64,000 nucleotides of DNA from Streptomyces sp. NBC_01275. GTDB taxonomy: Bacteria; Actinomycetota; Actinomycetes; Streptomycetales; Streptomycetaceae. The stretch lies in the NCBI RefSeq assembly GCF_026340655.1, contig NZ_JAPEOZ010000001.1, positions 3,410,001-3,474,000 on the forward strand, read 5' to 3'. Position numbers and translations under genes: made by a program. The first letter of the stretch is position 1; each line of letters begins with the position of its first letter. Shown piece after piece: positions 1 to 23,925 of this stretch. The notes under the pieces were generated by a model that saw nothing but the letters and a program-made list of their open reading frames with translations, made no database searches and was not told the origin of the DNA.

Positions 1-139
1 CAGGACCGCTTCACCGAACCTCCACATTGAGCCACGGAGGGGAAGCAACCGGGACAAGGAACCGGGAGCCCTATCCTTGTCCCCGGCAACGTCACGGATC
101 AGCCCACACCCGGGCAGCACGTACGAGGCCACCACACCG

Positions 140-212
140 GCCCCCGTAGCTCAGTGGATAGAGCAGGCGCCTTCTAAGCGCTTGGCCGCAGGTTCGAGTC
201 CTGCCGGGGGCG
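140..212 (+). tRNA. tRNA-Arg (anticodon TCT)
   Basis: A complete cloverleaf can be folded. The acceptor stem pairs GCCCCCG (140-146) with CGGGGGC (205-211), the discriminator base is G212, the T-arm is GCAGG-TTCGAGT-CCTGC, and the anticodon loop is CTTCTAA with TCT in the middle. No CCA is encoded (the next bases are CAA), as is usual in Streptomyces. It should read AGA codons, which are rare in this high-GC genome. Confidence 0.95.
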
Positions 213-221
213 CAAGTCTCC

Positions 222-245
222 GCCCTCCCTCCGGGAGGGCTTTTT
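222..245 (+). terminator. Rho-independent terminator of the tRNA
   Basis: GCCCTCCC (222-229) pairs with GGGAGGGC (233-240) across a 3-base loop and is followed by five T residues. It lies ten bases after the tRNA, so it probably ends that transcript. Confidence 0.8.
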
Positions 246-357
246 GCTGGTCAGGGCAGGTACAGGGGACGGGACGCCGCCTCTCGCGGAACCCTGCGGA
301 GGGCATCGCGCCGGACGCGGCCACGACAACGGCCGGAAAACGCAGGCGCCCGCAGCG

Positions 358-1104
358 CTACGGCCCTCGACGGCCGTAGGCCGACACCGCCGCCGACCCG
401 TCGTGCCGCACCAGCCGCGCCCCGCCGGCCCCCGTCGCCGCGACCGCCGCCGGATGCACGCCGTCGACGACCATGTCCGCCATGGCGAGTGGGGGCCGTA
501 CGGCGATCTGATCCGGCCAAGCGCGCACGGTCGGCGCGTGTTCGGGGGCGGACACCTCGAGGCGGCGCAGGGGCGCGCCCAGACCCACGCCGAGGGCCTT
601 CAGGACGGCTTCCTTGCGCGTCCAGGTGCGCAGGAAGGCGAGCCGGCGTTCGGCCGGCGGGCGGGCGTACAGGGCGGCGAGTTCGGCGTCGGAGAGGGCG
701 GTCCGCGCCGCCGTGTCGACGTCGACCGCGCCATAGGCGTCCTCGACGTCGAGGCCCACCTCCACGCCCCGGCAGACGGCGACGCCGACGACGTCACCGC
801 TGTGCGTGACGGAGAAGCCGTACTCCGGCAGCCGCGGCGCGGCCGACCGGTCCAGCCGGACCTTGCCGTGCGGACCGCCGCAGCGCGCGCACACGCGCCG
901 CAGCGGCACATCGGCGGGGGGTACGTCGAGAAGCTCGCCCAGGAGCAGTCGGCTGAGCGCGACGCCGAGCAGGAACCGGTCCCGGTCGCCGGGGCCGACG
1001 GTGGCCGCGTGCCGACCGCGTTCCACGGGGTCGAGCAGGTCCAGGAGACCGTCGTGGGCGTCGCCGAGGCGAGCCCACGAGACCTGCACCAAGACCTGCA
1101 CCAA
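358..1104 (-). CDS. Sfp-type 4'-phosphopantetheinyl transferase
   Basis: This 248-residue protein should transfer phosphopantetheine from CoA to a carrier-protein serine. The family motifs are clear: FSVTHSGD (about 97-104), the Mg-binding GLDVED (117-122) and WTRKEAVLKALG (161-172). The length fits the Sfp/Gsp group rather than AcpS. The start is uncertain: TTG at 1104 and GTGs at 1101 and 1089 lie in or beside a duplicated 12-bp segment (CACCAAGACCTG on the + strand), with no convincing ribosome site. It lies 3.9 kb from the acyl carrier protein gene at 4958, which makes that carrier a candidate substrate, though such enzymes are often genome-wide in scope. Confidence 0.85.
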   Translation of the reverse strand: MVQVLVQVSWARLGDAHDGLLDLLDPVERGRHAATVGPGDRDRFLLGVALSRLLLGELLDVPPADVPLRRVCARCGGPHGKVRLDRSAAPRLPEYGFSVTHSGDVVGVAVCRGVEVGLDVEDAYGAVDVDTAARTALSDAELAALYARPPAERRLAFLRTWTRKEAVLKALGVGLGAPLRRLEVSAPEHAPTVRAWPDQIAVRPPLAMADMVVDGVHPAAVAATGAGGARLVRHDGSAAVSAYGRRGP

Positions 1105-1200
1105 GACCTGTCCCGACCATCTGCACGGAGACCTGTCCCGAAACCGGCACCGAGCCGTGCACGAGAATGACCGGCGCCGGTACGGGAATTGCCGGATTTA

Positions 1201-1581
1201 CTAGTGGACCGCGCGCAGCATGCGCGTCACGTTGATCCTGGTCGGCGAAAGGCCGAGCTCCACGCTCTGCATCATCCGCTCGCCGTTCAGCCGGCCGTAG
1301 GCCAGCAGATCGACGTTGGCCAGGCTGAATTCGGGCCAGGTGTGAATGCTCAGATGCGATGCGGAAAGCAGGAGAATGGCGGTGACCGCACCGTTCGGGA
1401 AAACGTGCGACGCCTCACCGAGTACCGTGGCGTTTCCCTTTTCGGCGGCCGTGCGCAGTACCTGGAGGAGGCGCTCCTCGTCGGTCAGGATGCTGTGGTC
1501 GCTCACCCATACGTCAACGGCATAAGAGCACAGATCGTCGACGTTTATACCCTCGGTGGCGAGGCTGGCGGAGTTGGTCAT
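1201..1581 (-). CDS. SpeD-like pyruvoyl-dependent decarboxylase (atypical)
   Basis: This 126-residue protein has the fold signature of bacterial class 1B S-adenosylmethionine decarboxylase (SpeD). That enzyme cleaves itself at a serine to make a pyruvoyl cofactor. The segment around residues 73-84 reads SASHLSIHTWPE, placing the predicted cleavage serine at 75 and the processing histidine at 80. Canonical enzymes read ESH at the serine and FTCG downstream. Here the Glu is Ala74 and the catalytic Cys position is Tyr95 (context DLLAYG). It may therefore decarboxylate something other than AdoMet; SpeD relatives acting on ornithine or arginine are known. It is divergent from the polyamine-synthase operon starting at 2017, and the two probably share control in the region between. 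Confidence 0.75.
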   Translation of the reverse strand: MTNSASLATEGINVDDLCSYAVDVWVSDHSILTDEERLLQVLRTAAEKGNATVLGEASHVFPNGAVTAILLLSASHLSIHTWPEFSLANVDLLAYGRLNGERMMQSVELGLSPTRINVTRMLRAVH

Positions 1582-2016
1582 GGGGAACCGGGGGTGACGA
1601 ACCTCTGCCCCCGTCTCCTTTCACATAGATCTGCGCTGGTCCGCGCGGCCGAAGAGGAAGGTCGCGAGGCCGGTAAGTGGCGCTCGGTGGTGCCCAGCGT
1701 AGCATCAGGGTCGCTCTACGGCTCGCGCGCACAGTGCGTCAAGGGGGGCGGGGGGTGTCGGGGCGATTTGGCCGAAAATCTTCGGAAGGCATTCCAGAAG
1801 GCATTTCGGAAGGCGTTTCGGGAAACAGTCCCCAGACCCCCCTCCGAACGTCTCCGAAAGCCTTTCCGGAACTTTCCTGAATACTCTCGCCGGAAATTCC
1901 GGAGGATTTCCTTCGACTCACTCGGATTCGACTGTTCCGCACCGAGTCCGATCGGCTCCCCACCAGCCCGTATACTCGATACTCCCGGAATCCATCAGCT
2001 TGCCTGGAGCGGCATT
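1582..2016. promoter_or_regulatory. Divergent intergenic region with repeats and a promoter
   Basis: This 435-base gap separates the divergent SpeD-like and BpsA-like genes. It is less GC-rich than its surroundings. At 1782-1880 it carries short direct and inverted repeats of a GGAAGGC(A/G)TTTC type, and the left copies can pair with the complementary CCGAAAGCCTTTCCGG near 1853-1868. A good -10 hexamer TATACT (1971-1976) faces the rightward operon, which would give a leader of about 35 bases. GGAG at 2006-2009 serves the GTG start at 2017. I see no open frame here with coding character. Confidence 0.5.
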
Positions 2017-3876
2017 GTGACCAACGCGCGTCGGCACCCTCGGAGCACCACCGCCGATTCTGTGCTCACGGAAGTCGCGGACGCCGTCCGTCTCCAGGAG
2101 GGCCCGCCCGGAGTGCGGTCCGTCCTGCGCGCCCTGCGCCGTCTGGCCCCCGCCTCCACCAAGGACCTCAGCCGCGCCACCGGCCTGCCCGTCCCGATCG
2201 TGGCCGCCCTGGGCAACGAACTGCGCCGCCGGGGCCTCGTCACCAAGGAGCGCCCCTCCCGGCTGACCGAGGCCGGCCAGGACGTCGTCGCGCAGCTCGG
2301 CATGGACCTCACGCTCGACGCCACGTGCCGCACCTGCGACGGGCGCGAGCTGGTCATCCCCGACGTGCTGGACGAGGCCGTACGCCGGCTGCGCGCCCTG
2401 ATGGAGTCGGGGCCCGCCGCCGACATGGCGATCGACCAGTCGCACTGCACGGCCGAGACCAAGGTGCGCCGGGTGCTGGCGCTGCTGACGGCGGGCGCGC
2501 TGCCGGGCGGCTCCCTGCTGCTGATCGGCGACGACGACCTCGTCTCGCTGGCCGTCGCGGTCGTGGGGGACGTACTGGGCGGGCCGATCGTCGAGCGGGT
2601 GACCGTCGTCGACATCTCCCCCGAGATCCTCGACTACATCCAGAAGGTGTCCGCCGGCCTCGGCACCCCCGTCGACACGGTCCGGCACGACCTGCGCCAG
2701 CCGCTGCCCGAGGCCCTCCACGACCAGTACGACGTGGCGATGACCGACCCGCCGTACACCCCCGAAGGGGCCCGGCTCTTCCTCTCGCGCGCCGTGGAGG
2801 GCCTGCGGCCCGGCCCCGCGCACAGCGTCTTCTTCTCCTTCGGCGGCAAGAGCCCGGACGAGATGCTGGAGGTGCAGCGGGAGATCATGGGGCTCGGCCT
2901 GATCACCAACGGCTACATCCGCAACTTCAACGAGTACGAGGGCAGCGGCATCCTGGGCGGCGTCGGCTTCTTCCAGCACCTGCTCACCACCAACTCCACC
3001 GCGCCCTCCCACCAGGGCGAGTTCAGCGGTCCCCTCTACACCGGCGACAAGCGGACCCGGCAGCGCGAGTACACGTGCGTGGCGTGCGAGGGCAAGGTCC
3101 GCGTCGGCCCCGGGGCCCGCTGGACCTCGGTCGCCGCCCTGCGCGCCGACGGCTGCCCCCACTGCGGCAAGGGCCCCTTCCGCCCGGGCCGCCTGGTCCC
3201 GGTGGAGGACTCCCCGGCCCTGCCCACGGCCCCGGCCCCCACCGAGACACCGGCTCCGGTACAGGAGGCCCCGGTACAGGAGGCCCCGACGCCGACCCCG
3301 GCTCCCGCGGCGGCTCCCGCGCCGGCCCCGGCTCCCGCCCCCACGAGCCGAACGTACGGCTGGAGCCCCCCGGCCGACGACGAGCGTGCCGCCCTCGTCC
3401 AGCGGGCGCGGCCGTACGTCACGCGTCAGGCCGACGAGCGGGATCTGCCCGCCATCGGGGAGTTCGAGGCCGAGATCGCCCGGGTCTCCTTCGGCGAGGA
3501 CGCCGTCGACGACCCCGCCCGGTGGGCGTCCCGGCTGGGCCGTGCCATGGAGAAGTCGAAGGAGGGCATGATCGTCGCCCACGGTCCGGGCGAGCAGCCC
3601 GTCGGCTGGTGCTGGGTGAGCATCAACCAGAACGCGATGACCGGCGACCGCTACGCCAACTTCCGCTCCCTGGCCGTGTCCCCGGTGGACAACCGCGGCG
3701 ACGTCGCCGAGCTCCTGCTCACCGCGGGCCTGGAGTTCTGCCTGGCCAACGGCATCACGGAGGTCGTCGGCCGGGTCCACGTCGGCAACGTCCCGATGCG
3801 CACGGTCTACCGCAAGTTCGGCTTCGACCCCACCAGCCTGTCGATGAAGCTGTTCCTGCCCCGGGAGGCCACGTGA
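2017..3876 (+). CDS. BpsA-like branched polyamine synthase fused to a GNAT acetyltransferase domain
   Basis: The protein has 619 residues. Residues 1-385 resemble BpsA, N4-bis(aminopropyl)spermidine synthase, which adds aminopropyl groups from decarboxylated AdoMet to spermidine. An N-terminal winged-helix-like region is followed by CxxC (104/107), GDDDL (171-175), DPPY (244-247) and GGKS (276-279). A second Cys4 zinc ribbon follows (354/357 and 380/383). A Pro/Ala/Glu linker (about 395-450) then leads to a GNAT domain (467-619) ending VYRKFGF. Archaeal and thermophile BpsA proteins, as I recall them, end near 350 residues, so the GNAT half is an addition. GTG 2017 is chosen because GGAG lies seven bases upstream. 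It overlaps the next gene by four bases. The substrate is inferred: a polyamine or related amine is aminopropylated and perhaps acylated. Confidence 0.75.
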   Translation: MTNARRHPRSTTADSVLTEVADAVRLQEGPPGVRSVLRALRRLAPASTKDLSRATGLPVPIVAALGNELRRRGLVTKERPSRLTEAGQDVVAQLGMDLTLDATCRTCDGRELVIPDVLDEAVRRLRALMESGPAADMAIDQSHCTAETKVRRVLALLTAGALPGGSLLLIGDDDLVSLAVAVVGDVLGGPIVERVTVVDISPEILDYIQKVSAGLGTPVDTVRHDLRQPLPEALHDQYDVAMTDPPYTPEGARLFLSRAVEGLRPGPAHSVFFSFGGKSPDEMLEVQREIMGLGLITNGYIRNFNEYEGSGILGGVGFFQHLLTTNSTAPSHQGEFSGPLYTGDKRTRQREYTCVACEGKVRVGPGARWTSVAALRADGCPHCGKGPFRPGRLVPVEDSPALPTAPAPTETPAPVQEAPVQEAPTPTPAPAAAPAPAPAPAPTSRTYGWSPPADDERAALVQRARPYVTRQADERDLPAIGEFEAEIARVSFGEDAVDDPARWASRLGRAMEKSKEGMIVAHGPGEQPVGWCWVSINQNAMTGDRYANFRSLAVSPVDNRGDVAELLLTAGLEFCLANGITEVVGRVHVGNVPMRTVYRKFGFDPTSLSMKLFLPREAT

Positions 3877-4961
3877 CCGGCTTCGACGTGGACGGCGTCA
3901 AGTGCGTCGTCTGGGACCTCGACGGCACCCTCTGGGACGACGTCGCCGTGGAGACCCCCACCGACGAACTCCCCGCCCCCCGCCCCGAGATGCTCGCCGC
4001 GATCGACGCGCTGGCGGGGCTCGGCGTGCTCAGCAGCGTCGCGAGCCGCAGCGCGCCCGCCGTCCTGGACCGGCTGGCCGCCGGGCGCCCGGAGGTGCGG
4101 ACGCGCTTCCTCGCCCCGCAGGTGTCCTGGCAGGACAAGAGCGAGTCGCTGCGCCGGATCGCGAAGGACCTCGGCATCGCCGTGGAAGCGCTGGTCCTGG
4201 TCGACGACTCGCCCTACGAGCGCGCCGAGGTCGAGGCGCTGCTGCCCGGCGTGCGCACCCTCGCCCCCGAGGACGTACCGGAGCTCCTGGCCGCGTTCGA
4301 GGGCCGCGAGGTCACCCCCGAGTCACGCGAGCGGGTCCACCGCTACCGCACGGAGGAGACCCGCCGTGCCGAGGGCGAACGCTTCCAGGGCACCCGGGAG
4401 GAGTTCCTCGCCTGGTGCGACATGCGGCTCACGATCGGCGCCGCCGCCCCCGACGAACTCCCCCGCGCGCTGGAGCTCGCCGCCCGCACCCACCGCCTCA
4501 ACTCCTCCGGCCTCACCCCCGACCGGCTGCGCGAGCTGGCCGCCTCGGACGGGCACGAGGTGTACACCGCCCGGATGACCGACCGGTTCGGTGCGTACGG
4601 CGTCATCGGCGCCGCCCTCGTCGACCGCACCGCGCCCGCCGTCTGGTCCGTGCCGCTGCTCGCCCTCTCCTGCCGGGTGGCCGGCCGGGGCGCCGCGGCC
4701 GCCTTCCTGTTCCGGCTGATGGAACGGGCCCGGGAGGCAGGCGCCGACGAGTTCCGGGTGACCCTGCGCCCGACGGACGCCAACCTGGAGATGCGCATCC
4801 TGCTCCGCCAGGCGGGCCTGCGCCGAACGGACGTAACGGACGCGACGGACGCGGCCGGGGGCGCTGCGGATTCGGCGGTCCTGGGCAGGTCCCTCCACGG
4901 CGACCTGCCGACACCGCCCCCCTATCTGCATGTATCCGACCGAGAGGACGCCGACGCGTGA
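3873..4961 (+). CDS. FkbH-like HAD-family / acyltransferase protein
   Basis: This 362-residue protein matches FkbH-type enzymes. These pair a HAD phosphatase-like domain with a GNAT-like domain and load a glyceryl unit from 1,3-bisphosphoglycerate onto an acyl carrier protein. The HAD motif is DLDGTLW (15-21), with VDDSPYE further on. The C-terminal half contains RTHRLNSSG and LSCRVAGRG, whose Cys267 corresponds to the conserved cysteine of the family. No polyketide synthase is nearby, so methoxymalonyl extender synthesis is unlikely. The GTG start overlaps the upstream stop, with GGAGG at 3864-3868. The next gene is a carrier protein, also overlapping, as expected of a loading pair. Confidence 0.8.
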   Translation: MTGFDVDGVKCVVWDLDGTLWDDVAVETPTDELPAPRPEMLAAIDALAGLGVLSSVASRSAPAVLDRLAAGRPEVRTRFLAPQVSWQDKSESLRRIAKDLGIAVEALVLVDDSPYERAEVEALLPGVRTLAPEDVPELLAAFEGREVTPESRERVHRYRTEETRRAEGERFQGTREEFLAWCDMRLTIGAAAPDELPRALELAARTHRLNSSGLTPDRLRELAASDGHEVYTARMTDRFGAYGVIGAALVDRTAPAVWSVPLLALSCRVAGRGAAAAFLFRLMERAREAGADEFRVTLRPTDANLEMRILLRQAGLRRTDVTDATDAAGGAADSAVLGRSLHGDLPTPPPYLHVSDREDADA

Positions 4962-5236
4962 CGAACGCCCTGGACCGGGCCACGGTGGAGCGCGAGCTCC
5001 GTTCGATGATCGCCGAGGCCGCCCGGCTCGACCCTGCCGTGGTCGGGGAACTCCCGGCGGACACCGACCTGTTCGGCCCGCGGATCGGTCTCACCTCGCT
5101 GGCCGGCGTGACGCTGCTGGGCACGGTCGACGCCCGCTTCGGCGTGGACGTCGCCGCGCTGGACCTGAGCCTGGACAGCCTGCAGTCCATCGCCACGCTC
5201 ACCGACTTCGTCGCCGAGCACCTCCAGCCTCTCTAG
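4958..5236 (+). CDS. Acyl carrier protein
   Basis: This 92-residue acidic helical protein is the size of a free-standing acyl carrier protein. The attachment serine is most likely Ser47 in the context IGLTSLAGV, so the usual Asp-Ser-Leu is Thr-Ser-Leu here. The region after it (DARFGVDV) matches helix II and the following loop of carrier proteins. The start overlaps the stop of the FkbH-like gene (GTGA), so the two are translationally coupled. The likely role is to carry the small acyl group made by the FkbH-like enzyme. The nearby phosphopantetheinyl transferase may activate it. Confidence 0.8.
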   Translation: MTNALDRATVERELRSMIAEAARLDPAVVGELPADTDLFGPRIGLTSLAGVTLLGTVDARFGVDVAALDLSLDSLQSIATLTDFVAEHLQPL

Positions 5237-5377
5237 GCACCCGTCTGTAGGTCATCCCTGTTCAAAAAGGGTGATCCGCACGGACGTGCCGTGACTCGCC
5301 CAGGGCGGCGGCGTTGAAGGGGGAGTGCGGCGGCGCGTCCTGCCGTCGCGCGAACCGATCCCCTTAAGGAGAACGTG

Positions 5378-5674
5378 ATGTCTCGCATCGCGAAGGTGGC
5401 CGCGGTCGCCCTCGGCACCAGCGCCGTAGTGGTCAGCGGCGCCGGTCTGGCCATGGCGGACGCGGGTGCGCAGGGTGCGGCCGTGGGCTCGCCGGGTGTC
5501 CTGTCGGGCAACGTCATCCAGGTCCCGGTCCACGTGCCGGTCAACGTCTGCGGCAACACCATCGACGTCGTCGGCCTGCTGAACCCGGCCTTCGGCAACA
5601 CCTGCGCCAACGTCAGCGACCACGACGGCGGCGACAAGCACGGCCACGACCACGACCACGGCTACGGCAACTGA
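5378..5674 (+). CDS. chpG: Short chaplin with His/Asp-rich tail (ChpG-like)
   Basis: The 98-residue product has a Sec signal peptide (to about residue 28) and one chaplin domain. Its marks are GSPGVLSGN, QVPVHVPVNVCG and LLNPAFGNTC, with the two conserved cysteines. Chaplins form amyloid-like rodlets that make aerial hyphae and spores hydrophobic. The ATG at 5378 is preferred over GTG 5375 because AAGGAG (5366-5371) sits six bases before it. After the domain there is an added tail rich in His, Asp and Gly (about 18 residues), which is unlike typical short chaplins and could bind copper or another metal. The symbol is suggested by its position next to melC2. Confidence 0.85.
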   Translation: MSRIAKVAAVALGTSAVVVSGAGLAMADAGAQGAAVGSPGVLSGNVIQVPVHVPVNVCGNTIDVVGLLNPAFGNTCANVSDHDGGDKHGHDHDHGYGN

Positions 5675-5696
5675 CGTACCCCGTACGCAGCACGGA

Positions 5697-5729
5697 GAGA
5701 GCCCCGGCACCTCGAGCGCCGGGGCTCTC
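5697..5729. terminator. Bidirectional terminator between chpG and melC2
   Basis: GAGAGCCCCGGC (5697-5708) pairs perfectly with GCCGGGGCTCTC (5718-5729) around a nine-base loop. It sits between two convergent genes. Confidence 0.8.
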
Positions 5730-5777
5730 CCCGTGTTTCCTGATGTCTCCGGGTTCTTCCGGGTGCTTCCGGGCGGG

Positions 5778-6644
5778 TCAGGCGTACCGGTAGATCCGGC
5801 TCGCGTCCTCCAGCTGGTCCGGCGTCACGTCCCATGGGGGCAGCTTCTGGTGGCGGGCGACGACGCGGCCGCGCTGGCGGTCGCCGGGGCCCGGCGGCCC
5901 GGCCGGCAGATAGCGGTGGTCGCGGTGGCGGTGCTGCCAGCGGGTCCACACCAGGTCGATGAAGGCGTGGTGCAGCCAGAACACGGGGTCGTTGACGGAG
6001 GCGCCGCCGAGCATCGCCCCGCCGACCCACCGGTGCACCCGGTTGTGGTTGCGCCAGGCGACGCTGCCCCGGCCGGTCCCCCAGCCCTCCAACCTGTTGC
6101 GGAACCCCCTGGTGACCGTCGAGTCCCAGGGCGAGACGTCGTAGACCGGGTCCTGCAGCGCCCACTCCAGCTCGCTCGGGGTGGGCAGGTCGATGGGGTC
6201 GCGGGCGCGGCCGAGGTCCCGGGTGAGGAACTCCCCGTCGGTGATGCCCTCCTTGAGAGGCCAGTCGCCGGTGGAGTAGGCGAACGGCCCGGTCGTCACC
6301 TGGTGGTCGGAGGAGCGCCCGTTACCGCCGAGGAGGTCCTTCGTCCAGGGCGCGGAGGTCTTGCCGCGGTCCCGCGTCCAGTCCCAGTACGGCACCGTCA
6401 CCGAGGAGTCGACCCGGCGCAGCGCCTGCTCCAGATCCAGCAGGAACTGGCGGTGCCAGGGCAGGAAGGAGGGCGCCATGTGGGCTGTACGCAGGTCGCC
6501 CTCGCCGTCGGAGGCGTAGTAGTCGATGTGCGTCCGGACGAACTCGTCGTACTCGCCGCGCCGTTTGATCTCCAGGAGCGCCTTCACGAACCGCCTGCGT
6601 TCGGCGACGGTGAGCGTGCTGACGTCCTTACGCGTGTAGACCAT
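5778..6644 (-). CDS. melC2: Tyrosinase MelC2
   Basis: This 288-residue type-3 copper enzyme oxidises tyrosine and DOPA to quinones, giving melanin. The CuA histidines are visible at about 39, 55 and 64 (SFLPWHRQFLLD). The CuB set is at about 200, 204 and 225-226 (NHNRVH, then NDPVFWLHHAFID). PYWDW near residue 85 is typical. It has no signal peptide of its own and is normally carried out of the cell by MelC1. Its start overlaps the end of melC1 by 17 bases, so the two form an operon. Confidence 0.95.
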   Translation of the reverse strand: MVYTRKDVSTLTVAERRRFVKALLEIKRRGEYDEFVRTHIDYYASDGEGDLRTAHMAPSFLPWHRQFLLDLEQALRRVDSSVTVPYWDWTRDRGKTSAPWTKDLLGGNGRSSDHQVTTGPFAYSTGDWPLKEGITDGEFLTRDLGRARDPIDLPTPSELEWALQDPVYDVSPWDSTVTRGFRNRLEGWGTGRGSVAWRNHNRVHRWVGGAMLGGASVNDPVFWLHHAFIDLVWTRWQHRHRDHRYLPAGPPGPGDRQRGRVVARHQKLPPWDVTPDQLEDASRIYRYA

Positions 6645-11113: not shown

Positions 11114-11353
11114 TCAGTCGTTGACGCAGGTGTTGCCGAACGCCGGGTTCAGCAGGCCGATCACGTTGACCGTGTTGCCGCAGACGTTGACCGGAACGTG
11201 AACGGGAACCTGGATCAGGTTGCCCGACAGCACGCCCGGGGAGTGCTCGGCGATGCCGTTCGCGCCGCTGTCGGCAGCGGCGATGCCGGAGGCGCCGGCG
11301 ACGGCCGCGGCGGCAACGGAGGTCAGGACCAGGCCCTTCGCGATACGCGACAT
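11114..11353 (-). CDS. chpF: Short chaplin (ChpF-like)
   Basis: This 79-residue short chaplin has a signal peptide to about residue 27 and a single domain with HSPGVLSGN, QVPVHVPVNVCG and LLNPAFGNTCVND. The two cysteines of the class form the intramolecular disulphide. AAGGAG lies nine bases before ATG 11353. Secreted monomers coat aerial hyphae as amyloid fibrils. The symbol is proposed from the gene order (downstream of melC, beside the polysaccharide genes), not from alignment. Confidence 0.85.
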   Translation of the reverse strand: MSRIAKGLVLTSVAAAAVAGASGIAAADSGANGIAEHSPGVLSGNLIQVPVHVPVNVCGNTVNVIGLLNPAFGNTCVND

Positions 11354-12938: not shown

Positions 12939-14216
12939 ATGCACCAGCCAGAACCCGACGTAGGAACCCGGGTCCTGCACCTCACCCAGCCCGTGGACGG
13001 CGGGGTCGCCCGGGTCGTGTCGGACCTGACGCGGGCCCAGCTCGCCGCCGGTCTGCACGTCACCGTCGCCTGCCCCGACAGCGCCCTCGCCGAGGAGTTG
13101 CGCTCGCTGGGCGCGGACGTGCGCAGATGGCAGGCGACCCGGTCGCCGGGCCCTTCGCTCCCGGGTGAGGTACGACGGCTCGCGCGCGTGCTCGACGAGG
13201 CGCGCCCCGAACTGGTGCACGCCCACAGCGCGAAGGCCGGGCTCGCCGGACGGCTCGCGGTGCGCGGGCGGATCCCGACCGTGTTCCAGCCGCACGCCTG
13301 GTCCTTCGAGGCGGTCGGCGGGGCCACCGCGGCCCTCGCCCTGCGCTGGGAGCGGTTCGGGGCGCGGTGGGCCGACCGGCTGGTGTGCGTGAGCGAGGCG
13401 GAGCGCACGACCGGGCTGCGCGCCGGGATCGCCGGGCGGTGGAGCGTCGTCCCCAACGGCATCGACCCCGAGCGGTTCCGTCCGGCCCCCGCCGCCGACG
13501 CCGTACGGGCCGCTCTGCTGCCGGATCTCGAGGCGGGCGCGCCGTTGGTGGTGTGCGTGGGGCGGCTGTGTCGGCAGAAGGGGCAGGACGTGCTGCTCGA
13601 CGCGTGGGCGGACGTCCTGCGGAAGGCGCCCGGTGCGCGGCTGGCGCTGGTGGGCGACGGTCCCGACCTTGCGGAACTCCGAGCCCGCGCCCCGGAGTCC
13701 GTGCGGTTCGCCGGGGCGGTCGCGGACGTCGCGCCCTGGTACCAGGCCGCCGATCTGGTGGTGCTGCCCTCGCGCTGGGAGGGTATGGCGCTGGCCCCCC
13801 TGGAGGCGCTGGCCTGCGGGCGTCCCGTGGTGGTGACCGACGTGGACGGCGCCCGGGAGAGCCTGCCGGCCGCGCTCGCGCCCCGCTGTCTGGTGCCCGC
13901 CGAGAACCCGGCGGTGCTGGCCGCAGCGGTCGCGGAACTGCTCCTCGACCCGCCGTTGCGGGAGTCGCTCGGCAGACAGGGGCGCCGGCACGTCCTGTCC
14001 ACGCACGACGTGCGGGGCACGGCCCGGGCGGTCGCGGGCGTGTACGGCGCGCTGCTCACGGCCGAGAAGCCCGAGACGACCGCGGACGCCGAAGCCGAGC
14101 CGCGCGTCGCGTCCGCCCAGCGCCTCCCCCAGAACCCCACCCAGAGGCCCGCCCCGTGCCCCAGCCAGTGCTCAACCGAGTGCACCACCGAGTGCAGGGA
14201 GTCCATCCACTCGTGA
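12939..14216 (+). CDS. GT4 family glycosyltransferase
   Basis: This 425-residue GT-B enzyme has the usual order: VLHLTQPVDGGVARVV at the N-terminus, HAHSAKAGLAGRLA, VVPNGIDPERF, and the donor-binding end PSRWEGMALAPLEALACGRPVV with the EX7E glutamates. It should add a sugar from a nucleotide donor to the growing lipid-linked glycan on the cytoplasmic side. A C-terminal tail beyond about 385 is unrelated to the fold and ends in a Cys/Thr/Glu-rich segment (CSTECTTEC). The stop overlaps the next gene's GTG, so it is coupled to the priming transferase. Confidence 0.85.
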   Translation: MHQPEPDVGTRVLHLTQPVDGGVARVVSDLTRAQLAAGLHVTVACPDSALAEELRSLGADVRRWQATRSPGPSLPGEVRRLARVLDEARPELVHAHSAKAGLAGRLAVRGRIPTVFQPHAWSFEAVGGATAALALRWERFGARWADRLVCVSEAERTTGLRAGIAGRWSVVPNGIDPERFRPAPAADAVRAALLPDLEAGAPLVVCVGRLCRQKGQDVLLDAWADVLRKAPGARLALVGDGPDLAELRARAPESVRFAGAVADVAPWYQAADLVVLPSRWEGMALAPLEALACGRPVVVTDVDGARESLPAALAPRCLVPAENPAVLAAAVAELLLDPPLRESLGRQGRRHVLSTHDVRGTARAVAGVYGALLTAEKPETTADAEAEPRVASAQRLPQNPTQRPAPCPSQCSTECTTECRESIHS

Positions 14217-15637
14217 CTGCGGAAAGCACCGTCCCCTCCCCCGGCGCGCAGCCCGGATACTCGTCCGTCTCGGTCTTCCCCCGGCGCGAGAGCGCCGCGG
14301 GCTTCCGGTTCCCCGCCAGACATCCCCCCGTGCGGCCCGCCGCGCCGCTGCCCCTGCTGCTCGCCGACGGCCTCGCCGCCGCCGTCGGCGCGTCCGTGCT
14401 CGTCGCGGCGGGGCACCGCCCGCTGCTGGTGGCCCTGCTGGTCGCGGCGACGATGCTGCTGCGCCCGCAGCGCCCGCGCCCGGTGGTCGGCGTACTGGAC
14501 GAACTGCCCGTCCTCTGCGGCCGGATCGCGGTGGCCTGGCTGGCGCTCGGCGCGCTCGCCGCGGTGTGGCACCCGGCGCACCCCTTCTCGGCGCACACCC
14601 TCCTGCTCGGCTTCGCCGCCCAGACCGCGGTCGACGGCGCCGCCCGGTCCGTGGTCCATCTGAGCCGCCGCCGGGAGCTGCTGCGCCGCCCGCGCTCCGC
14701 GCTCGTCATCGGCCCGGCGGCGACCGCGCAGCGGGTGGCCGCCGCCGTGCTGCGTCACCCCCGCTCCGGGATGGAGCCGGTGGGCGTGGTGGCCGAACGC
14801 CCCGACGGCCCCGAAGGCGCCGACGAACTGCCCGTGCTGACGACCGGTCAGGAGGTGCAGCGGGCCCTCATCCAGAACGGCGTCCAGGAGGTCCTGTGCG
14901 TCCACCCGGCCGTGCGCACCGTCCAGGGCCCGCTGCTGCGGGCGCTCGCCGAGTCGGGCTGCACGGTGTGGGAGGTCGACGCCGAGACCCCCTCGTACAC
15001 GAGCCGCGAGCAGCTCGCCGGGTTCTCCTGCCGACGGCTGGACCTGGGCCGCAGACGGCGGGGCAGCTTCGGCAAGCGGCTGATGGACGTCACCGTCTCC
15101 GGGGCCCTGCTGCTGCTGGTCAGCCCGCTGCTGCTGGGGTGCGCGACGGTGCTGCGGCTGACCGCAGGGCCGGGGGTGGTGTTCCGGCAGGAGCGCATCG
15201 GCATGGACGGGCGTCCGTTCACCCTGCTGAAGTTCCGCACCCATCGTCCGGTCGACGAGCACGAGGCCGCGACCCGCTGGAGCGTGGCGGGCGAGCGGGA
15301 GATGAGCCGTTTCTGCCGTTTCCTGCGCCAGACCTCGCTGGACGAGCTGCTCCAGCTGTGGAACGTCCTGCGGGGCGATATGAGCCTGGTCGGCCCGCGC
15401 CCCGAACGCCCCTACTTCGTCGGCCAGTTCAGCCAGAGCTACCCCGGCTACGCGGCCCGTCACCGGATGCGGGCCGGCATCACCGGCCTGGCCCAGATCC
15501 ACGGACTGCGCGGCGACACCTCGATCGAGGACCGGGCCCGCTTCGACAACGCGTACATCGACAACTGGTCGCTGTGGCAGGACGTGTGCATCCTGCTGCG
15601 CACCGCGGCCGCCCTCGTGCGACCGACCGGGAGCTGA
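14213..15637 (+). CDS. Exopolysaccharide priming glycosyl-1-phosphate transferase (WcaJ/WbaP type)
   Basis: This 474-residue membrane enzyme would start repeat-unit synthesis by moving a sugar-1-phosphate onto undecaprenyl phosphate. The N-terminal half has four to five membrane segments and a CoA-binding-like cytoplasmic region. The catalytic domain from about 285 has KRLMDVTVSG, FRQERIGMDGRPFTLLKFRT, NVLRGDMSLVGPRPERP and GLAQIHGLRG. GTG 14213 overlaps the previous stop. Being the committed priming enzyme, it defines this as a polysaccharide locus. Confidence 0.9.
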   Translation: MTAESTVPSPGAQPGYSSVSVFPRRESAAGFRFPARHPPVRPAAPLPLLLADGLAAAVGASVLVAAGHRPLLVALLVAATMLLRPQRPRPVVGVLDELPVLCGRIAVAWLALGALAAVWHPAHPFSAHTLLLGFAAQTAVDGAARSVVHLSRRRELLRRPRSALVIGPAATAQRVAAAVLRHPRSGMEPVGVVAERPDGPEGADELPVLTTGQEVQRALIQNGVQEVLCVHPAVRTVQGPLLRALAESGCTVWEVDAETPSYTSREQLAGFSCRRLDLGRRRRGSFGKRLMDVTVSGALLLLVSPLLLGCATVLRLTAGPGVVFRQERIGMDGRPFTLLKFRTHRPVDEHEAATRWSVAGEREMSRFCRFLRQTSLDELLQLWNVLRGDMSLVGPRPERPYFVGQFSQSYPGYAARHRMRAGITGLAQIHGLRGDTSIEDRARFDNAYIDNWSLWQDVCILLRTAAALVRPTGS

Positions 15638-15646
15638 AACCGACCG

Positions 15647-16957
15647 ATGAGTCTCGCCCTGCCCCTCCCCCGCGCCCGGGCCTGGTCCCCGGTGCTGCCC
15701 GTCGTGGCCGTGGTCGCCCTGCTCGGCCTGCCGGCCTCCCCCGGCGGCGAGGGCGGCGCGGGCCCGGCCGACGCGCTCTCCGCGCTCGTCGTCCTGTTCT
15801 GCGTACTGCGGCTGCTGCGGCAGCGGCGGCGGCCCCTGTCCCGTACGGCCGCCGTGGTCCTCGGGCTGCCGGTCGTCGGGCTGGCGCTCGCCGCGATGGG
15901 CGCGTCCTCGCCGGGCGCGGGGCTGACCGGCCTCGGCCGCTATCTCCAGGTCTTCGTCCTCGTCCCGACGGCCGTGCTGCTGCTCGTCCGCGACCGCCAT
16001 GACTTCCGGGTGCTGGCCTGGTCGTTCGTGGGGCTCGCGGGGTGGCAGGGGGCGGTCGGCGTGCACCAGTTCGTCACCGGGACCGGCGCCTCCTACCAGG
16101 GCGAGGACATCCGGGCGGTCGGCACCTTCGGACCGCAGGACGTGATGGGCATGGCGACGGTCGTGTCCTTCGGGCTGATCTGCGCGGTGGGGCTGGCCCT
16201 GGGCCGGACCTCCGTACGGCAGCGGGGCGTCGCCGCGGCCTGCGCGCTCGCGCTGTTCGTGCCGCTCGCCCTCTCCTTCAGCCGGGGCGCGTGGATCGCG
16301 ACCGCGCTGACCTGCACGCTCCAGCTGGCGCTGGCCGGAGTGCGGCGGGCGCTGAAGGTGGGCGCCGTGGCGGTCGCGGCCGGGGTGATCCTGGTGGGCG
16401 GCTTCGGCGTCGGCTCGGCGATGCTCCAGCAGCGCATCGGCAGCATCACCCAGGTCGCGGACGCCCCCGACCAGTCGGTCACCGACCGGTACACGATGTG
16501 GGCGGCCGCGGTCGGCATGTGGCGGGCGCAGCCGCTGACCGGCGTCGGGCTGAAGGGCTTCCCCGAGCACCGGGACGCGCACGCCTCGCTCGCGCTGTCC
16601 TCCGGCAGCGACACCGCGGGCGCGGGCTCCGGCTTCGTCAAGCAGCCGCTGCTGTCCCCGCACAACATGTATCTGCTGGTCCTGAGCGAACAGGGCCTGA
16701 TCGGACTGCTCGCCCTCGCGGGCGGCTGGCTGGCGATGCTGGCGTGCGGGCTGCGCGGCTGGTGGCGGGCGCGCGCGTCCGCCGCCGGCACGGGCCTCGA
16801 CTGCGCGCTCGTCGCCTGCGGACTGCTCCTCTGGCAGCTCGTCGACTTCATGTACGCCGACATCGGCGGGCCCTCGACCGTGCTGACCGCCGTCGTCCTC
16901 GGGCTCGTGGCCTGGTGGGCGCTGGTGGGCAGCGGCCGGAAGGCGCTGACCCGATGA
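15647..16957 (+). CDS. O-antigen ligase / Wzy-like polymerase
   Basis: This 436-residue protein has about eleven hydrophobic segments and a large external loop (about 245-330). The loop bears the Wzy_C-type pattern: FSRGAWIA before it, YTMWAAAVGMWRAQPLTGVG, then SPHNMYLLVLSEQGLIGLL. Such proteins polymerise or ligate lipid-linked repeat units outside the membrane. It lies nine bases after the priming transferase, and its stop overlaps the flippase start (ATGA). Confidence 0.85.
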   Translation: MSLALPLPRARAWSPVLPVVAVVALLGLPASPGGEGGAGPADALSALVVLFCVLRLLRQRRRPLSRTAAVVLGLPVVGLALAAMGASSPGAGLTGLGRYLQVFVLVPTAVLLLVRDRHDFRVLAWSFVGLAGWQGAVGVHQFVTGTGASYQGEDIRAVGTFGPQDVMGMATVVSFGLICAVGLALGRTSVRQRGVAAACALALFVPLALSFSRGAWIATALTCTLQLALAGVRRALKVGAVAVAAGVILVGGFGVGSAMLQQRIGSITQVADAPDQSVTDRYTMWAAAVGMWRAQPLTGVGLKGFPEHRDAHASLALSSGSDTAGAGSGFVKQPLLSPHNMYLLVLSEQGLIGLLALAGGWLAMLACGLRGWWRARASAAGTGLDCALVACGLLLWQLVDFMYADIGGPSTVLTAVVLGLVAWWALVGSGRKALTR

Positions 16958-18750
16958 CGGCGACGCCCGCCCGGACACCTGGGACGCCCGGGACACCCTC
17001 GACACCCCCGACGCCCCCGACACCCCCGACACCCCGGACCGACGGGGCCACGGGGGCCGTACCGTCGGCGCGAGCCGCGGCAGGGGCGGCGGAGGCCGTG
17101 GAGGCGGCAGGAGCCGCGGAGTTCGGCGAGGGCGGATCCCGAAACGCCGAGGGCGGGCCGACGGGCGGCAGGGCCGAACTCCCCTCCGTCTCCCGGAACT
17201 TCCTCGCCAAGGCCGCTCTCGTCACCGCCGTCCTCTCGGTCGCCGGGGCCCTGCTCGGCCTGGTCCGGGATCAGGCGCTGGCCCGGCTGTTCGGGGCGGG
17301 CAGCGACACGGACGCCTTCCTCGTGGCGTGGACCGTGCCCGAGTTCGCCTCGACGCTGCTCATCGAGGACGGGCTGTCCTTCGCGCTGATCCCGGCGTTC
17401 AGCATGGCGCTGGCCCGGCGCTCCCAGGGCGCCCCCGGGGACCCGGTCCGCGCCCTGGTCGCCGGCACGCTCCCCCGGCTGTCGCTGGCCTTCGTCGCCG
17501 TCGGCGCGCTGCTCATCGGCACCGCCCCCCAGCTGGTCGAGGCCCTCGCCCCCGGGCTGCCCGACCCGGCCCTCGCCGTCGACTGCACCCGGCTCACCGC
17601 GACCTGCGTGGTGAGCTTCGGGCTCGCCGGGTACTGCAGCGCGGCCCTGCGCGCGCACCGGCGGTACGTGGCGCCGGCGGCGATCTACGTGGCGTACAAC
17701 ACCGGGATCATCACCGGGATGTTCGTCCTGGGCGGGCACTGGGGGGTGCGGTCGGCGGCGGCCGGGGTGGCGGTCGGCGGGCTGCTCATGGTCGTCGTGC
17801 AACTGCCTTCGCTGTTGCGGCAGTTGAGGAAGCGGGGGGCGGCCGGGGAGGAGGCGGCCCCGGGCGAGGAGGCGCGGCCGCTCGACACCGCGCTGCTCGC
17901 GACGGTGCTGCTCTTCGCGTTGTGCCGGCAGTCCCAGGTGCTCATCGAGCGGTTCCTCGCCTCACATCTGCCGGCCGGGGCGATCTCGCATCTGAACTAC
18001 GCGCAGAAGGTCGCCCAGATGCCGATGATCTTCTCGGTGATGGTGTGCACGGTCACCTTCCCGGTGGTCGCGCGGGCGCTGGCCGAGGGGGACACCGAGC
18101 GGGCCCGGGGCCGGGTGGAGCGTGATCTGTCGCTGGCCGCGTGCATCGTGCTGCTCGGCACGGCCGCGGTCGTGGCCTGCGCCCCACAGATCGTCGAAGT
18201 CCTCTTCCAGCGGGGCGCGTTCACCGCGCGGGACACGACGGCGACGGCGGGCGTGATGCGCGTGTACGCGCTCGGGCTGCTCGGCCAGACCCTGGTCGGC
18301 GTACTGGTCCGCTCCTACTTCTCGGCGGGCCGCGGCTCCTGGTACCCGGTGGGCGCGATGGCCGCAGGGATCGTCCTGACCGCCTGGATCGGCGCGCTGA
18401 CCGTCGGGCCCTGGGGCGTGTACGGGATCGCCGCCGCCAATGCGACCGGCATCACCGTCACCGCCCTGGTGCTGCTGGCCGGCATGGGCCCGCGCAGCGT
18501 CCCGATCAGCACCCGGGGCGTGCTGCGCGAGCTGAGCCGGCCGGTGCGGGCCGCCGTCGTCGCCGCCCTCGCCGGGGGTTTCGTCGCGGCCCGGTTCGCC
18601 GGCCCGCTGTCCGGGCTCGCCGCCGGGGGGCTCACCGTCACCGCCGTGTTCGTCCTGCTCGGCCGGGCCCTGGGCGCCCAGGGCATCGCCTGCGCACTCC
18701 GATCCGTACGTTCCGCGACCCGAAGGCTGCCTCATGCCCCTTCCCGTTGA
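16954..18750 (+). CDS. MurJ/MviN-family lipid-linked oligosaccharide flippase
   Basis: The 598-residue protein has about fourteen transmembrane helices of the MOP superfamily. MurJ marks include RDQALARLFGAGSDTDAFLVAW and ALIPAFSMAL, with HLNYAQKVAQMP later. MurJ moves lipid II; a copy inside a polysaccharide operon more likely moves the undecaprenyl-linked repeat unit made here. The first 75 residues are low complexity (repeated TP-type units, then Ala/Glu-rich) and not part of the fold. It overlaps the upstream gene by four bases and the downstream one by 17. Confidence 0.85.
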   Translation: MTATPARTPGTPGTPSTPPTPPTPPTPRTDGATGAVPSARAAAGAAEAVEAAGAAEFGEGGSRNAEGGPTGGRAELPSVSRNFLAKAALVTAVLSVAGALLGLVRDQALARLFGAGSDTDAFLVAWTVPEFASTLLIEDGLSFALIPAFSMALARRSQGAPGDPVRALVAGTLPRLSLAFVAVGALLIGTAPQLVEALAPGLPDPALAVDCTRLTATCVVSFGLAGYCSAALRAHRRYVAPAAIYVAYNTGIITGMFVLGGHWGVRSAAAGVAVGGLLMVVVQLPSLLRQLRKRGAAGEEAAPGEEARPLDTALLATVLLFALCRQSQVLIERFLASHLPAGAISHLNYAQKVAQMPMIFSVMVCTVTFPVVARALAEGDTERARGRVERDLSLAACIVLLGTAAVVACAPQIVEVLFQRGAFTARDTTATAGVMRVYALGLLGQTLVGVLVRSYFSAGRGSWYPVGAMAAGIVLTAWIGALTVGPWGVYGIAAANATGITVTALVLLAGMGPRSVPISTRGVLRELSRPVRAAVVAALAGGFVAARFAGPLSGLAAGGLTVTAVFVLLGRALGAQGIACALRSVRSATRRLPHAPSR

Positions 18751-19510
18751 CGCTGTCGGCGCCGCCGGCACTTCTGCCGCCTCTCGCGGCGTCGGCGCCA
18801 GAGTCCCCTGGGTGGCGATGTACCACTCCGTGGGCGACTGCGCCGACGACCCGTACCGCATCACCGTCGCCCCCGAACGGCTCGACCGGCAGCTGGCCTG
18901 GCTGCGCGGGCGGGGTCTGCGGGGCGTGTCCCTGGCCGAGTTGCTCGCCGCCCGCGCCCGGGGCGAGGGCCGGCGGCTGGTCGGGCTGACCTTCGACGAC
19001 GGGTACGCCGACTTCCTCACCGGCGCGCTGCCCGTCCTGCGCCGGCACGGCTGCACGGCCACCCTGTTCGTGCTGCCCGGCCGGCTCGGCGGCGAGAACG
19101 CCTGGGATCCGCTGGGCCCGCGCAAGCCGCTGCTGACCGCCGACGCCATCCGGCAGGCCGCCGCCGAGGGCGTCGAGATCGGCTCCCACGGGCTGACCCA
19201 CGTCGACCTCACCCGGGCCGACGACCGCACCCTGAACGCGGAGACGGCCGAGAGCCGCACCGCCCTCGCCGAACTCCTGGACGCCGAGGTCGCCGGCTTC
19301 TGCTACCCCTACGGGACGATCGACCAGCGGGCCGTGGCCGCCGTACGCGACGCCGGCTACGCCTACGCGTGCGCGATCGACCCCGGCCCGCTGAACGGCC
19401 CGCACGCCCTGCCCCGCGTGCACATCGGGCAGAACGACACCGCCGTACGGCTGTTCCTGAAGTACCGGCTGCACCGGCTGCGTCGGCGTCCCGTCGAGGG
19501 GCTGCGGTGA
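18734..19510 (+). CDS. Polysaccharide deacetylase (NodB/CE4 family)
   Basis: This 258-residue protein has the CE4 motifs TFDDGYAD (metal-binding Asp pair), SHGLTH (metal-binding histidines) and YPYG, with YHSVGD near the N-terminus. The family removes N-acetyl groups from GlcNAc-type sugars. No signal peptide is obvious, so it may act on the lipid-linked intermediate or be exported atypically. It overlaps the flippase gene, and its stop overlaps the next glycosyltransferase start (GTGA). It suggests the polymer contains an N-acetylated sugar, perhaps made cationic. Confidence 0.85.
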   Translation: MPLPVDAVGAAGTSAASRGVGARVPWVAMYHSVGDCADDPYRITVAPERLDRQLAWLRGRGLRGVSLAELLAARARGEGRRLVGLTFDDGYADFLTGALPVLRRHGCTATLFVLPGRLGGENAWDPLGPRKPLLTADAIRQAAAEGVEIGSHGLTHVDLTRADDRTLNAETAESRTALAELLDAEVAGFCYPYGTIDQRAVAAVRDAGYAYACAIDPGPLNGPHALPRVHIGQNDTAVRLFLKYRLHRLRRRPVEGLR

Positions 19511-22480: not shown

Positions 22481-22508
22481 CGCGGGCCTGCCGCCACCGC
22501 ACCGCGGC

Positions 22509-23888: not shown

Positions 23889-23925
23889 GCCTGCTCCTTT
23901 CTCCACTCTGGTGCTGCTCGCGCTC

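What the first reader, a model, noticed from the sequence alone, without database searches (positions are those of the whole stretch)
358..5236. A SpeD-like / BpsA-GNAT / FkbH / carrier protein cluster that looks like an undescribed pathway
A SpeD-like decarboxylase is divergent from an overlapping operon of a BpsA-type aminopropyl transferase fused to a GNAT domain, an FkbH-like acyl loader and an acyl carrier protein, with a phosphopantetheinyl transferase 0.1 kb past the decarboxylase. Each part is known singly, but I know of no system that combines them. A coherent reading is: decarboxylated AdoMet or another amine is made; BpsA builds a branched amine; FkbH loads a glyceryl-like acyl group onto the carrier; the GNAT domain joins acyl and amine. 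There is no polyketide synthase or adenylation enzyme. Seen: genes and motifs. Inferred: order of reactions and product.
Basis: partly seen in the sequence, partly recalled or inferred. Interest (0 to 1): 0.85.

Follow-up and report, generated by a model that had tools for sequence, protein, structure and literature searches.

The report
Conserved aminopropyl–glyceryl-carrier gene cluster
A small set of genes in this Streptomyces genome, found together in several distantly related actinobacteria, looks like an undescribed pathway that makes an aminopropyl-bearing amine and probably caps it with a three-carbon acid delivered by a carrier protein; the product is not known.

Summary
SpeD-like + PPTase genes lie divergent from an overlapping BpsA–GNAT, FkbH, ACP operon. 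Among loci with a GDDD-type BpsA and complete flanks, all five core functions lie together in 23 of 23 (19 Streptomycetaceae, 4 from other families), down to about 40% identity. Six genomic settings share only cluster genes, apart from one weak generic match. Outside Streptomycetaceae the GNAT is a separate gene in 3 of 4 loci.

The logic is partly readable. Cluster BpsAs keep GDDD, which holds the aminopropyl end of dcSAM; 25 of 25 scanned loci with SpeD-unlinked BpsA read GDHD. FkbH and ACP active-site residues are invariant. The GNAT lacks the first CoA-loop glycine, which suits an acyl-ACP donor.

Two results go against the simple reading: SpeD has Tyr for catalytic Cys83, and BpsA's acidic spermidine-site residue E259 is Gly. 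Acceptor, product and even SpeD's substrate are unproven. No listed result of ten literature searches describes the combination. Best reading: a dedicated pathway to an N-glyceryl-acylated, aminopropylated amine.

The parts
358..1104 (-). Sfp-type 4'-phosphopantetheinyl transferase (would activate the ACP)
   Evidence: PF01648 52.8 bits; a homologue lies in the locus in 20 of the 23 complete loci: 19 of 19 Streptomycetaceae and L092 (38% identity, E 1e-12, next to SpeD); none found in L139, L140, L141
1201..1581 (-). SpeD-like pyruvoyl decarboxylase, 126 aa; S75 and H80 = T. maritima S63 and H68; C83 is Tyr95, E62 is Ala74
1582..2016 (.). 435-bp divergent intergenic region
   Evidence: sequence; no Rfam family matched in it
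2017..3876 (+). BpsA-GNAT fusion, 619 aa: winged-helix-like N-terminus, aminopropyltransferase core, zinc ribbon, Pro/Ala-rich linker, GNAT
   Evidence: PF01861 and PF00583; MarR/IclR-type HTH matches below their cut-offs; first nine fold matches are BpsA structures or the P. furiosus homologue 2qm3
2377..2994 (+). BpsA catalytic core (residues 121-326) with GDDD (171-174) and DPPY (244-247)
   Evidence: GDDD and DPPY invariant in 31 aligned proteins, the window's included
3064..3186 (+). Zinc-ribbon-like module with C354, C357, C380, C383
   Evidence: four Cys invariant in 31 aligned proteins
3424..3825 (+). GNAT domain (residues about 470-603) without the first Gly of the CoA pyrophosphate loop
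   Evidence: separate gene in L139, L140, L141
3873..4961 (+). FkbH-type HAD/acyl loader, 362 aa; DLDGT, K89, D111/D112, C267
   Evidence: TIGR01686 180.2 bits; residues invariant in 15 aligned proteins, the window's included
4958..5236 (+). Acyl carrier protein, 92 aa, phosphopantetheine Ser47
   Evidence: PF00550; Ser47 invariant in 8 aligned ACPs, the window's included

Best explanation
The five core genes plus the PPTase encode one dedicated small-molecule pathway. (1) The SpeD-like protein makes decarboxylated AdoMet (inferred). (2) The BpsA domain moves the 3-aminopropyl group from dcSAM to an amine acceptor that is not yet known (donor supported by motif, acceptor unknown). (3) The PPTase arms the ACP, and FkbH loads a D-glyceryl unit from 1,3-bisphosphoglycerate onto it (inferred from family and conserved residues). 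(4) The GNAT moves the glyceryl group from the ACP to the aminopropyl amine, giving an N-glyceryl amide and freeing the ACP (inferred). BpsA and GNAT are fused in Streptomyces so that steps 2 and 4 act on one molecule. The unit is shown; the reaction order and product are inferred.
For: One unit: SpeD, BpsA, GNAT, FkbH and ACP are together in 23 of 23 complete loci that hold a GDDD-type BpsA: 19 Streptomycetaceae plus L092, L139, L140, L141. All-against-all comparison of six settings shares only cluster genes, apart from one generic NAD-binding-like pair at 30% identity, E 7e-5. L139, L140 and L141 carry the five genes as one run SpeD-BpsA-GNAT-FkbH-ACP with GNAT separate, so the Streptomyces fusion joins neighbours. 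Donor is dcSAM: GDDD, which in T. kodakarensis BpsA positions the dcSAM aminopropyl group (PMC12979288, section 11; passages), is kept in the cluster BpsAs, while 25 of 25 SpeD-unlinked loci L053-L077 read GDHD. Of 74 class genomes with BpsA_C but no cluster, 6 have a SpeD hit. The window genome has one SpeD, in this cluster. Acyl-ACP donor: the first Gly of the Q/R-x-x-G loop is Asp/Glu in 103 of the 105 proteins that the pattern matched, and Ala in 2 (109 examined, 4 unmatched). FkbH D15, D17, D111, D112, C267 invariant; ACP Ser47 invariant; FkbH-ACP fusions P0265, P0272. FkbH domains are reported to load glycerate units from phosphoglycerates (PMC10099666, passages). A second SpeD-bearing locus in one genome (L022) pairs a 92%-identical SpeD, a PPTase, an ACP and a divergent BpsA with a BtrH-type domain, the same theme with another acyltransferase.
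Against: C83, named as essential in AdoMetDC and expected by the authors in the ADC and ODC offshoots (PMC10407285, section 7), is Tyr here and in 91 of the 120 listed closest SpeDs; E62 is Gln/Ala in 120 of 120. Genome G901 has a canonical-type SpeD elsewhere and still keeps a cluster SpeD, so plain dcSAM supply does not fully explain the gene. Tk E259, which helps activate spermidine, aligns with Gly, followed by a Lys invariant in 31 proteins, so the acceptor may not be a polycation. The Tk C-terminal acidic carrier cluster was not seen; a zinc ribbon lies there. GDDD does not follow SpeD without exception: the SpeD-bearing L022 has GDDE. I saw no gene for acceptor synthesis, export or regulation shared by the six settings.
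Confidence: 0.5

Rival explanations
1. The SpeD-like protein is no longer an AdoMet decarboxylase. With Tyr for Cys83 and Ala/Gln for Glu62 it decarboxylates another substrate, for example an amino acid, and supplies the amine rather than dcSAM; BpsA then uses SAM or dcSAM from elsewhere.
For: Residue changes; SpeD offshoots that decarboxylate ornithine or arginine are documented (PMC10407285, abstract, passages and section 7); the cluster SpeD is kept beside a canonical-type SpeD in G901; the cluster clade is split from the canonical SpeDs on a long branch, support 97/93.
Against: The window genome has no other SpeD hit, yet its BpsA keeps GDDD. L140/L141 SpeDs in the same operon keep E62, S63, H68 and C83, and L092 keeps C83.
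Confidence: 0.2
2. BpsA-GNAT modifies a macromolecule (RNA or a protein): the winged helix and zinc ribbon bind it, BpsA adds aminopropyl, GNAT caps it.
For: HTH-like matches below cut-off and a zinc ribbon with invariant Cys; DPPY, recalled as common in N-methyltransferases of nucleic acids and proteins; the human RNA methyltransferase METTL5 among the fold matches (rank 42, rmsd 3.9, target TM 0.73).
Against: The N-terminal part and a CxxC also align with the small-molecule BpsAs of Thermococcus and Thermus. The first nine fold matches are BpsA structures or 2qm3, though at rmsd 16-17 over about 350 columns because the domains are placed differently. The cluster is rare and patchy (9 of 297 Streptomycetaceae), unlike housekeeping RNA modification.
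Confidence: 0.12
3. FkbH-ACP makes glyceryl- or hydroxymalonyl-ACP for a polyketide or tetronate assembly elsewhere in the genome, and SpeD-BpsA-GNAT is a separate function that travels with it.
For: Known FkbH-ACP pairs supply assembly lines (recalled; paper listings).
Against: The five genes stay together in 23 of 23 loci, and no dehydrogenase, methyltransferase or ketosynthase gene is shared by the six settings; the largest protein called in the 64-kb window by my own simple gene caller is 855 aa.
Confidence: 0.08
4. The genes are neighbours by accident or by simple inheritance of a chromosomal region.
For: Most Streptomyces copies share one place: a tyrosinase lies beside the cluster in 17 of the 19 Streptomycetaceae loci and a chaplin in 15.
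Against: L013, L014, L092, L139 and L140/L141 have unrelated flanks but the same genes.
Confidence: 0.02

Closest known systems
BpsA, branched-chain polyamine synthase of Thermococcus and Thermus (EC 2.5.1.128)
   Same: Same Pfam family over the core; GDDD in both; DPP and NEY as in Thermococcus; best-ranked fold matches
   Different: Acceptor residue E259 is Gly with an invariant Lys next to it; zinc ribbon and GNAT at the C-terminal side; actinobacterial host; sits with FkbH and ACP
Class 1b AdoMet decarboxylase (SpeD) and its ADC/ODC offshoots
   Different: Cys83 is Tyr and Glu62 is Ala; the partner gene is BpsA-GNAT rather than the SpeE, SpeB or SpeY-type neighbours reported for SpeD and its offshoots (PMC10407285, passages)
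FkbH/ACP glyceryl loading in methoxymalonyl-ACP and tetronate pathways
   Same: FkbH above its curated cut-off, free-standing ACP
   Different: No oxidising or methylating partners and no ketosynthase shared among the loci compared; partnered with a GNAT and an aminopropyltransferase
BtrH-type acyl-ACP to amine transfer (butirosin; function recalled)
   Same: Proposed joining logic: carrier-bound acyl group moved to an amine
   Different: GNAT fold here; a BtrH_N protein is seen only in the related locus L022
Microcin C aminopropylation (MccD/MccE)
   Same: Aminopropyl group from SAM used in a natural product (PMC10491745, passages)
   Different: MccE decarboxylase domain is PLP-dependent, acceptor is a phosphate; no carrier protein or FkbH named in those passages

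Membership tests
AdoMet decarboxylase class 1b (SpeD) | Pfam AdoMet_dc above cut-off | tested here: met
   81.8 against 25 bits
AdoMet decarboxylase class 1b (SpeD) | NCBIfam equivalog TIGR03330 above cut-off | tested here: not met
   74.0 against 75.65 bits, a narrow miss
AdoMet decarboxylase class 1b (SpeD) | Pyruvoyl-forming Ser63 and His68 | tested here: met
   S75 and H80; Ser in 120 of 120 and His in 117 of 120 listed relatives
AdoMet decarboxylase class 1b (SpeD) | Catalytic Cys83 | tested here: not met
   Tyr95 in the window; Tyr in 91 and Cys in 29 of 120 listed relatives; therefore not filed as a bona fide AdoMetDC
AdoMet decarboxylase class 1b (SpeD) | SAM decarboxylation | not testable with these tools
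   needs enzyme assay
BpsA (EC 2.5.1.128) | Pfam BpsA_C and BpsA fold | tested here: met
   138.9 against 27 bits; 5xnc first in Foldseek
BpsA (EC 2.5.1.128) | GDDD motif that holds the dcSAM aminopropyl group | tested here: met
   invariant in 31 aligned proteins
BpsA (EC 2.5.1.128) | Acidic acceptor residue E259 | tested here: not met
   aligns with Gly (numbering checked); therefore BpsA-like donor chemistry, not filed as a spermidine N4-aminopropyltransferase
BpsA (EC 2.5.1.128) | C-terminal acidic aminopropyl-carrier cluster | tested here: inconclusive
   alignments end before it; a zinc ribbon follows the core here
FkbH glyceryl transferase/phosphatase | FkbH domain above cut-off, DxDxT and conserved residues | tested here: met
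   180.2 against 146.65 bits; invariants
FkbH glyceryl transferase/phosphatase | Glyceryl transfer to ACP | not testable with these tools
   needs assay
Methoxymalonyl-ACP pathway | Oxidising and methylating partner genes | tested here: not met
   none shared by the six settings; an F420_oxidored-family gene follows the ACP in L140 and, 75% identical, in L141 only
CoA-dependent GNAT acetyltransferase | Q/R-x-x-G-x-G/A loop (motif recalled; seen in 5t7d) | tested here: not met
   first Gly replaced by Asp/Glu in 103 and by Ala in 2 of 105 matched proteins; the last G/A position is kept as Ala or Gly
Acyl carrier protein | PP-binding domain with Ser | tested here: met
   30.5 against 20.8 bits; Ser47 in 8 of 8

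The most novel reading that the evidence does not exclude
A new class of carrier-protein-dependent acyl-aminopropyl natural product in actinobacteria, made without polyketide synthase, NRPS adenylation or CoA ligase. Dedicated dcSAM is made by a pyruvoyl decarboxylase whose catalytic Cys has been replaced by Tyr, a mesophilic BpsA puts aminopropyl on a non-spermidine acceptor, and a GNAT that has given up CoA takes glyceryl straight from a FkbH-loaded ACP.
Probability: 0.4. Interest if true: 0.85.

Novelty: new variant of a known kind. Interest (0 to 1): 0.7.

Why it matters
If right, it links polyamine chemistry (dcSAM, aminopropyl transfer) to carrier-protein chemistry (FkbH, ACP), which I saw joined in no listed result of ten literature searches. 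It would give a short six-protein route to a compound class that clusters defined by polyketide or NRPS core enzymes would not reveal. It also offers a direct test of how a pyruvoyl decarboxylase works, or changes substrate, when its catalytic Cys becomes Tyr, and of whether the GDDD/GDHD switch reports dcSAM or SAM as donor across the BpsA family.

Tried and rejected
Chance neighbourhood: rejected by the comparison of six settings. Ordinary spermidine branching as in thermophiles: weakened, because acceptor residue E259 is not kept. Methoxymalonyl supply for a polyketide synthase: rejected as main reading (no shared partner genes). Phage or plasmid origin: the window SpeD found no phage match at E 1e-5, although a canonical-type SpeD (from L142, E limit 1e-3) matched 147 phage records; BpsA-GNAT found only a 38% partial match in one Nonomuraea record of the plasmid collection, which is 11.85 Mb long. 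Rfam found only the tRNA at 140-212 in window 1-6500. The alpha/beta hydrolase called between PPTase and SpeD in 7 of 19 Streptomycetaceae loci has no close copy in the window genome (best 42 bits), so it is an accessory at most. The SpeD tree has few columns: Cys/Tyr83 needs two changes, one origin is not ruled out, the place of L140/L141 is unsure, and 6 loci were left out because no motif was found in them. I expected a proline criterion from PMC10407285 to separate AdoMetDC from ADC, but the figure is not held and I could not tell which proline is meant, so I dropped it. Fold comparison of the GNAT alone was not run. The BpsA-GNAT model has pTM 0.56 and a low-confidence linker, so inter-domain placement is not used. 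A draft of this report said that the PPTase was confined to Streptomycetaceae; a recheck found it in L092 too, missed by my gene caller.

Rows left out of the 23-locus count: L021 and L022 (other clusters), the SpeD-unlinked loci L078-L091 and L097, L096 (no window-protein match), L093-L095 (SpeD only), L032 (same record as L018) and L033, L034, L036 (cut by contig ends). The loci were picked by BpsA or SpeD matches, so the count says what travels with those genes, not how often FkbH or ACP occurs alone. In the motif scan L096 gave no motif, L011 gave GDSD and L012 (the L022 protein) GDDE; for L083 and L141 a chance match was listed first. The class-wide SpeD search scored at most 11 candidates a genome, so a few distant SpeDs could be missed.

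Literature: ten searches listed no paper describing this combination. I saw titles and starts of abstracts of the listed part only (for example 20 of 219, 20 of 258, 15 of 30). The library holds open-licence papers only, so absence there is not proof.
Full report
What is there. The first 5.2 kb of the window hold two divergent transcription units. To the left: a 126-aa SpeD-like protein (1201-1581, minus strand) followed after 96 bp by an Sfp-type PPTase (358-1104). To the right: a 619-aa BpsA-GNAT fusion (2017-3876), a FkbH protein (3873-4961) and a 92-aa ACP (4958-5236), joined by 4-bp GTGA overlaps. Each assignment has a Pfam or NCBIfam match above its curated cut-off; the AdoMet decarboxylase equivalog, however, is missed by under two bits. 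A tRNA lies just left (140-212); a chaplin and a tyrosinase lie right.

Do the genes stay together? Yes. tblastn of the window proteins against loci fetched around BpsA found PPTase, SpeD, BpsA, GNAT, FkbH and ACP together in 19 of 19 Streptomycetaceae loci with complete flanks. Three more loci are cut by contig ends and show what they can show, and one is a duplicate record. Searches with BpsA and SpeD models in other taxa found the core in L092 (G370; its FkbH is 100% identical to one named Nocardioides alkalitolerans), L139 (G901, a Pseudonocardiaceae genome by my inference, perhaps Allokutzneria albata as its contig length differs by 100 bases from that of P0252), and L140 and L141 (G825, G815, another family). 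Identities of the core proteins to the window in the four range from 40 to 68%; the L141 ACP is a called gene whose tblastn match is weak (E 5e-4, not listed). L139, L140 and L141 have the order SpeD, BpsA, GNAT, FkbH, ACP on one strand, with GNAT a separate gene. L092 has the fusion, FkbH and ACP in one run, SpeD converging on the ACP, and a PPTase homologue (38%) diverging from SpeD. So the PPTase is linked in 20 of 23 loci and was not found in L139, L140 or L141. An all-against-all comparison of the proteins called in six settings (window/L023, L013, L014, L092, L139, L140/L141) finds shared cluster genes and, beyond them, only one weak pair between L092 and L140 (30% over 144 residues, E 7e-5); L140 and L141, which are of one genus, share flanks as well.

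How common is it? BpsA_C is in 10 of 297 and SpeD in 12 of 297 Streptomycetaceae genomes; 9 genomes hold both and these are the cluster genomes. The other three SpeDs (G225, G228, G261) keep E62 and C83 and lie in other gene neighbourhoods. The tenth BpsA (G134) has GDSD and lies in a different gene cluster. In a class-wide sample of 394 genomes, 17 have SpeD by the A1 model; 6 score 191 bits or more and all 6 have the cluster, while the rest score at most 76 bits. In 392 genomes of the order of G326, 88 have SpeD, 3 score above 110 bits, and all 3 have the operon. In 196 genomes of the order of G370, 4 have SpeD and only G370 scores above 50 bits. This is suggestive only, as I did not read those contigs.

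The donor side. T. kodakarensis BpsA uses GDDD to position the aminopropyl end of dcSAM (PMC12979288, section 11; passages). The cluster BpsAs aligned or scanned have GDDD, as do 116 of 120 listed relatives, 4 giving no pattern match. All 25 SpeD-unlinked loci L053-L077 read GDHD, and so do L088-L091 and L097 where read. Exceptions: L022, which has SpeD nearby, reads GDDE; G134 reads GDSD; L096 gave no motif. In the class sample 74 genomes have BpsA_C above the cut-off without the cluster, and 6 of them have a SpeD hit, all weak and canonical in type or unread. My inference: GDDD means dcSAM, and GDHD means a donor that keeps its carboxylate.

The acceptor side. Asp225 (DPP) and Tyr290 (NEY) of Tk BpsA are kept; Glu259 aligns with Gly, followed by a Lys invariant in 31 proteins and Arg in L140/L141 (numbering checked). 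The acceptor may therefore carry a negative group, and the word 'polyamine' is not earned. A zinc ribbon with four invariant Cys follows the core.

The acyl side. FkbH residues D15, D17, K89, D111, D112 and C267 are invariant in 15 proteins, and ACP Ser47 in 8. P0265 and P0272 are FkbH-ACP fusions by their Pfam domains or name and length. FkbH domains of known assembly lines are said to load glycerate units from 1,3-bisphosphoglycerate or 3-phosphoglycerate (PMC10099666, passages). The GNAT loop that in phosphinothricin acetyltransferase 5t7d reads QRTGLG reads NRGDVA here. The first Gly is Asp/Glu in 103 of 105 matched proteins of 500 aa or more and Ala in 2; 4 of the 109 examined did not match the pattern. 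L092, L139, L140 and L141 also lack it. That these are the CoA-loop positions is recalled knowledge of GNATs. This fits an acyl-ACP donor but does not prove one.

A related locus. The genome of L019 carries a second SpeD-bearing cluster, L022, whose SpeD is 92% identical to the window's, with a PPTase, an alpha/beta hydrolase like the one beside SpeD in 7 Streptomyces loci, a BtrH_N protein, a divergent BpsA (GDDE), an ACP, a PIG-L-like protein (just under its cut-off) and radical SAM genes. Carrier-bound acyl transfer to an aminopropyl product thus seems to recur with a different acyltransferase.

Conclusion. The unit is real, conserved and, as far as the listings of ten searches of an open library show, undescribed. 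The glyceryl-amide reading is the best-supported mechanism at about even odds. The main uncertainty is what SpeD decarboxylates and what BpsA acts on.

Noticed in passing
L022:52-10877 (second SpeD locus in the genome of L019): A separate gene cluster with a 92%-identical SpeD, PPTase, alpha/beta hydrolase, BtrH_N protein, divergent BpsA (GDDE), ACP, PIG-L-like protein and radical-SAM genes; looks like a sister pathway.
   Followed up: partly
L021:8050-9135: A BpsA-family protein with GDSD in a large unknown cluster (radical SAM, aminotransferase, ATP-grasp, carbamoyltransferase-like, NAGK-like genes; names by eye) in a genome where PF02675 found no SpeD.
   Followed up: no
L078:7175-8941 and similar places in L079-L091: SpeD-unlinked actinobacterial BpsA-like protein of about 500-600 aa, GDHD where read; in 8 of these 14 loci a gltB-like gene of about 1,500 aa lies beside it. 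Function unknown, probably not a dcSAM enzyme.
   Followed up: partly
L093, L094, L095: Canonical-motif SpeD genes in three Streptomycetaceae genomes; L093 and L094 share their neighbours, and L095 has similar-looking ones; function unknown.
   Followed up: no
window 28703-30385: Three small secreted repeat-like proteins resembling rodlins (recalled; the two that were scanned have no Pfam match).
   Followed up: no
window 5375-5674 and 11114-11353: Two chaplin-like genes; the first matches PF03777, lies right after the ACP and keeps a place in the locus in 15 of 19 Streptomycetaceae copies of the cluster.
   Followed up: partly
window 12939-26764: Glycosyltransferase, MurJ-like flippase and polysaccharide deacetylase genes, apparently an exopolysaccharide cluster.
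   Followed up: no
window 1582-2016: The divergent promoter region holds repeated and inverted GGAAGGCATTTC-like stretches (by eye) that might be regulatory.
   Followed up: no
L140:4338-5195 and L141:13170-13979: A protein that by eye resembles SAM hydroxide adenosyltransferase (SAM hydrolase) near the unit in both genomes of one genus (69% identical).
   Followed up: no
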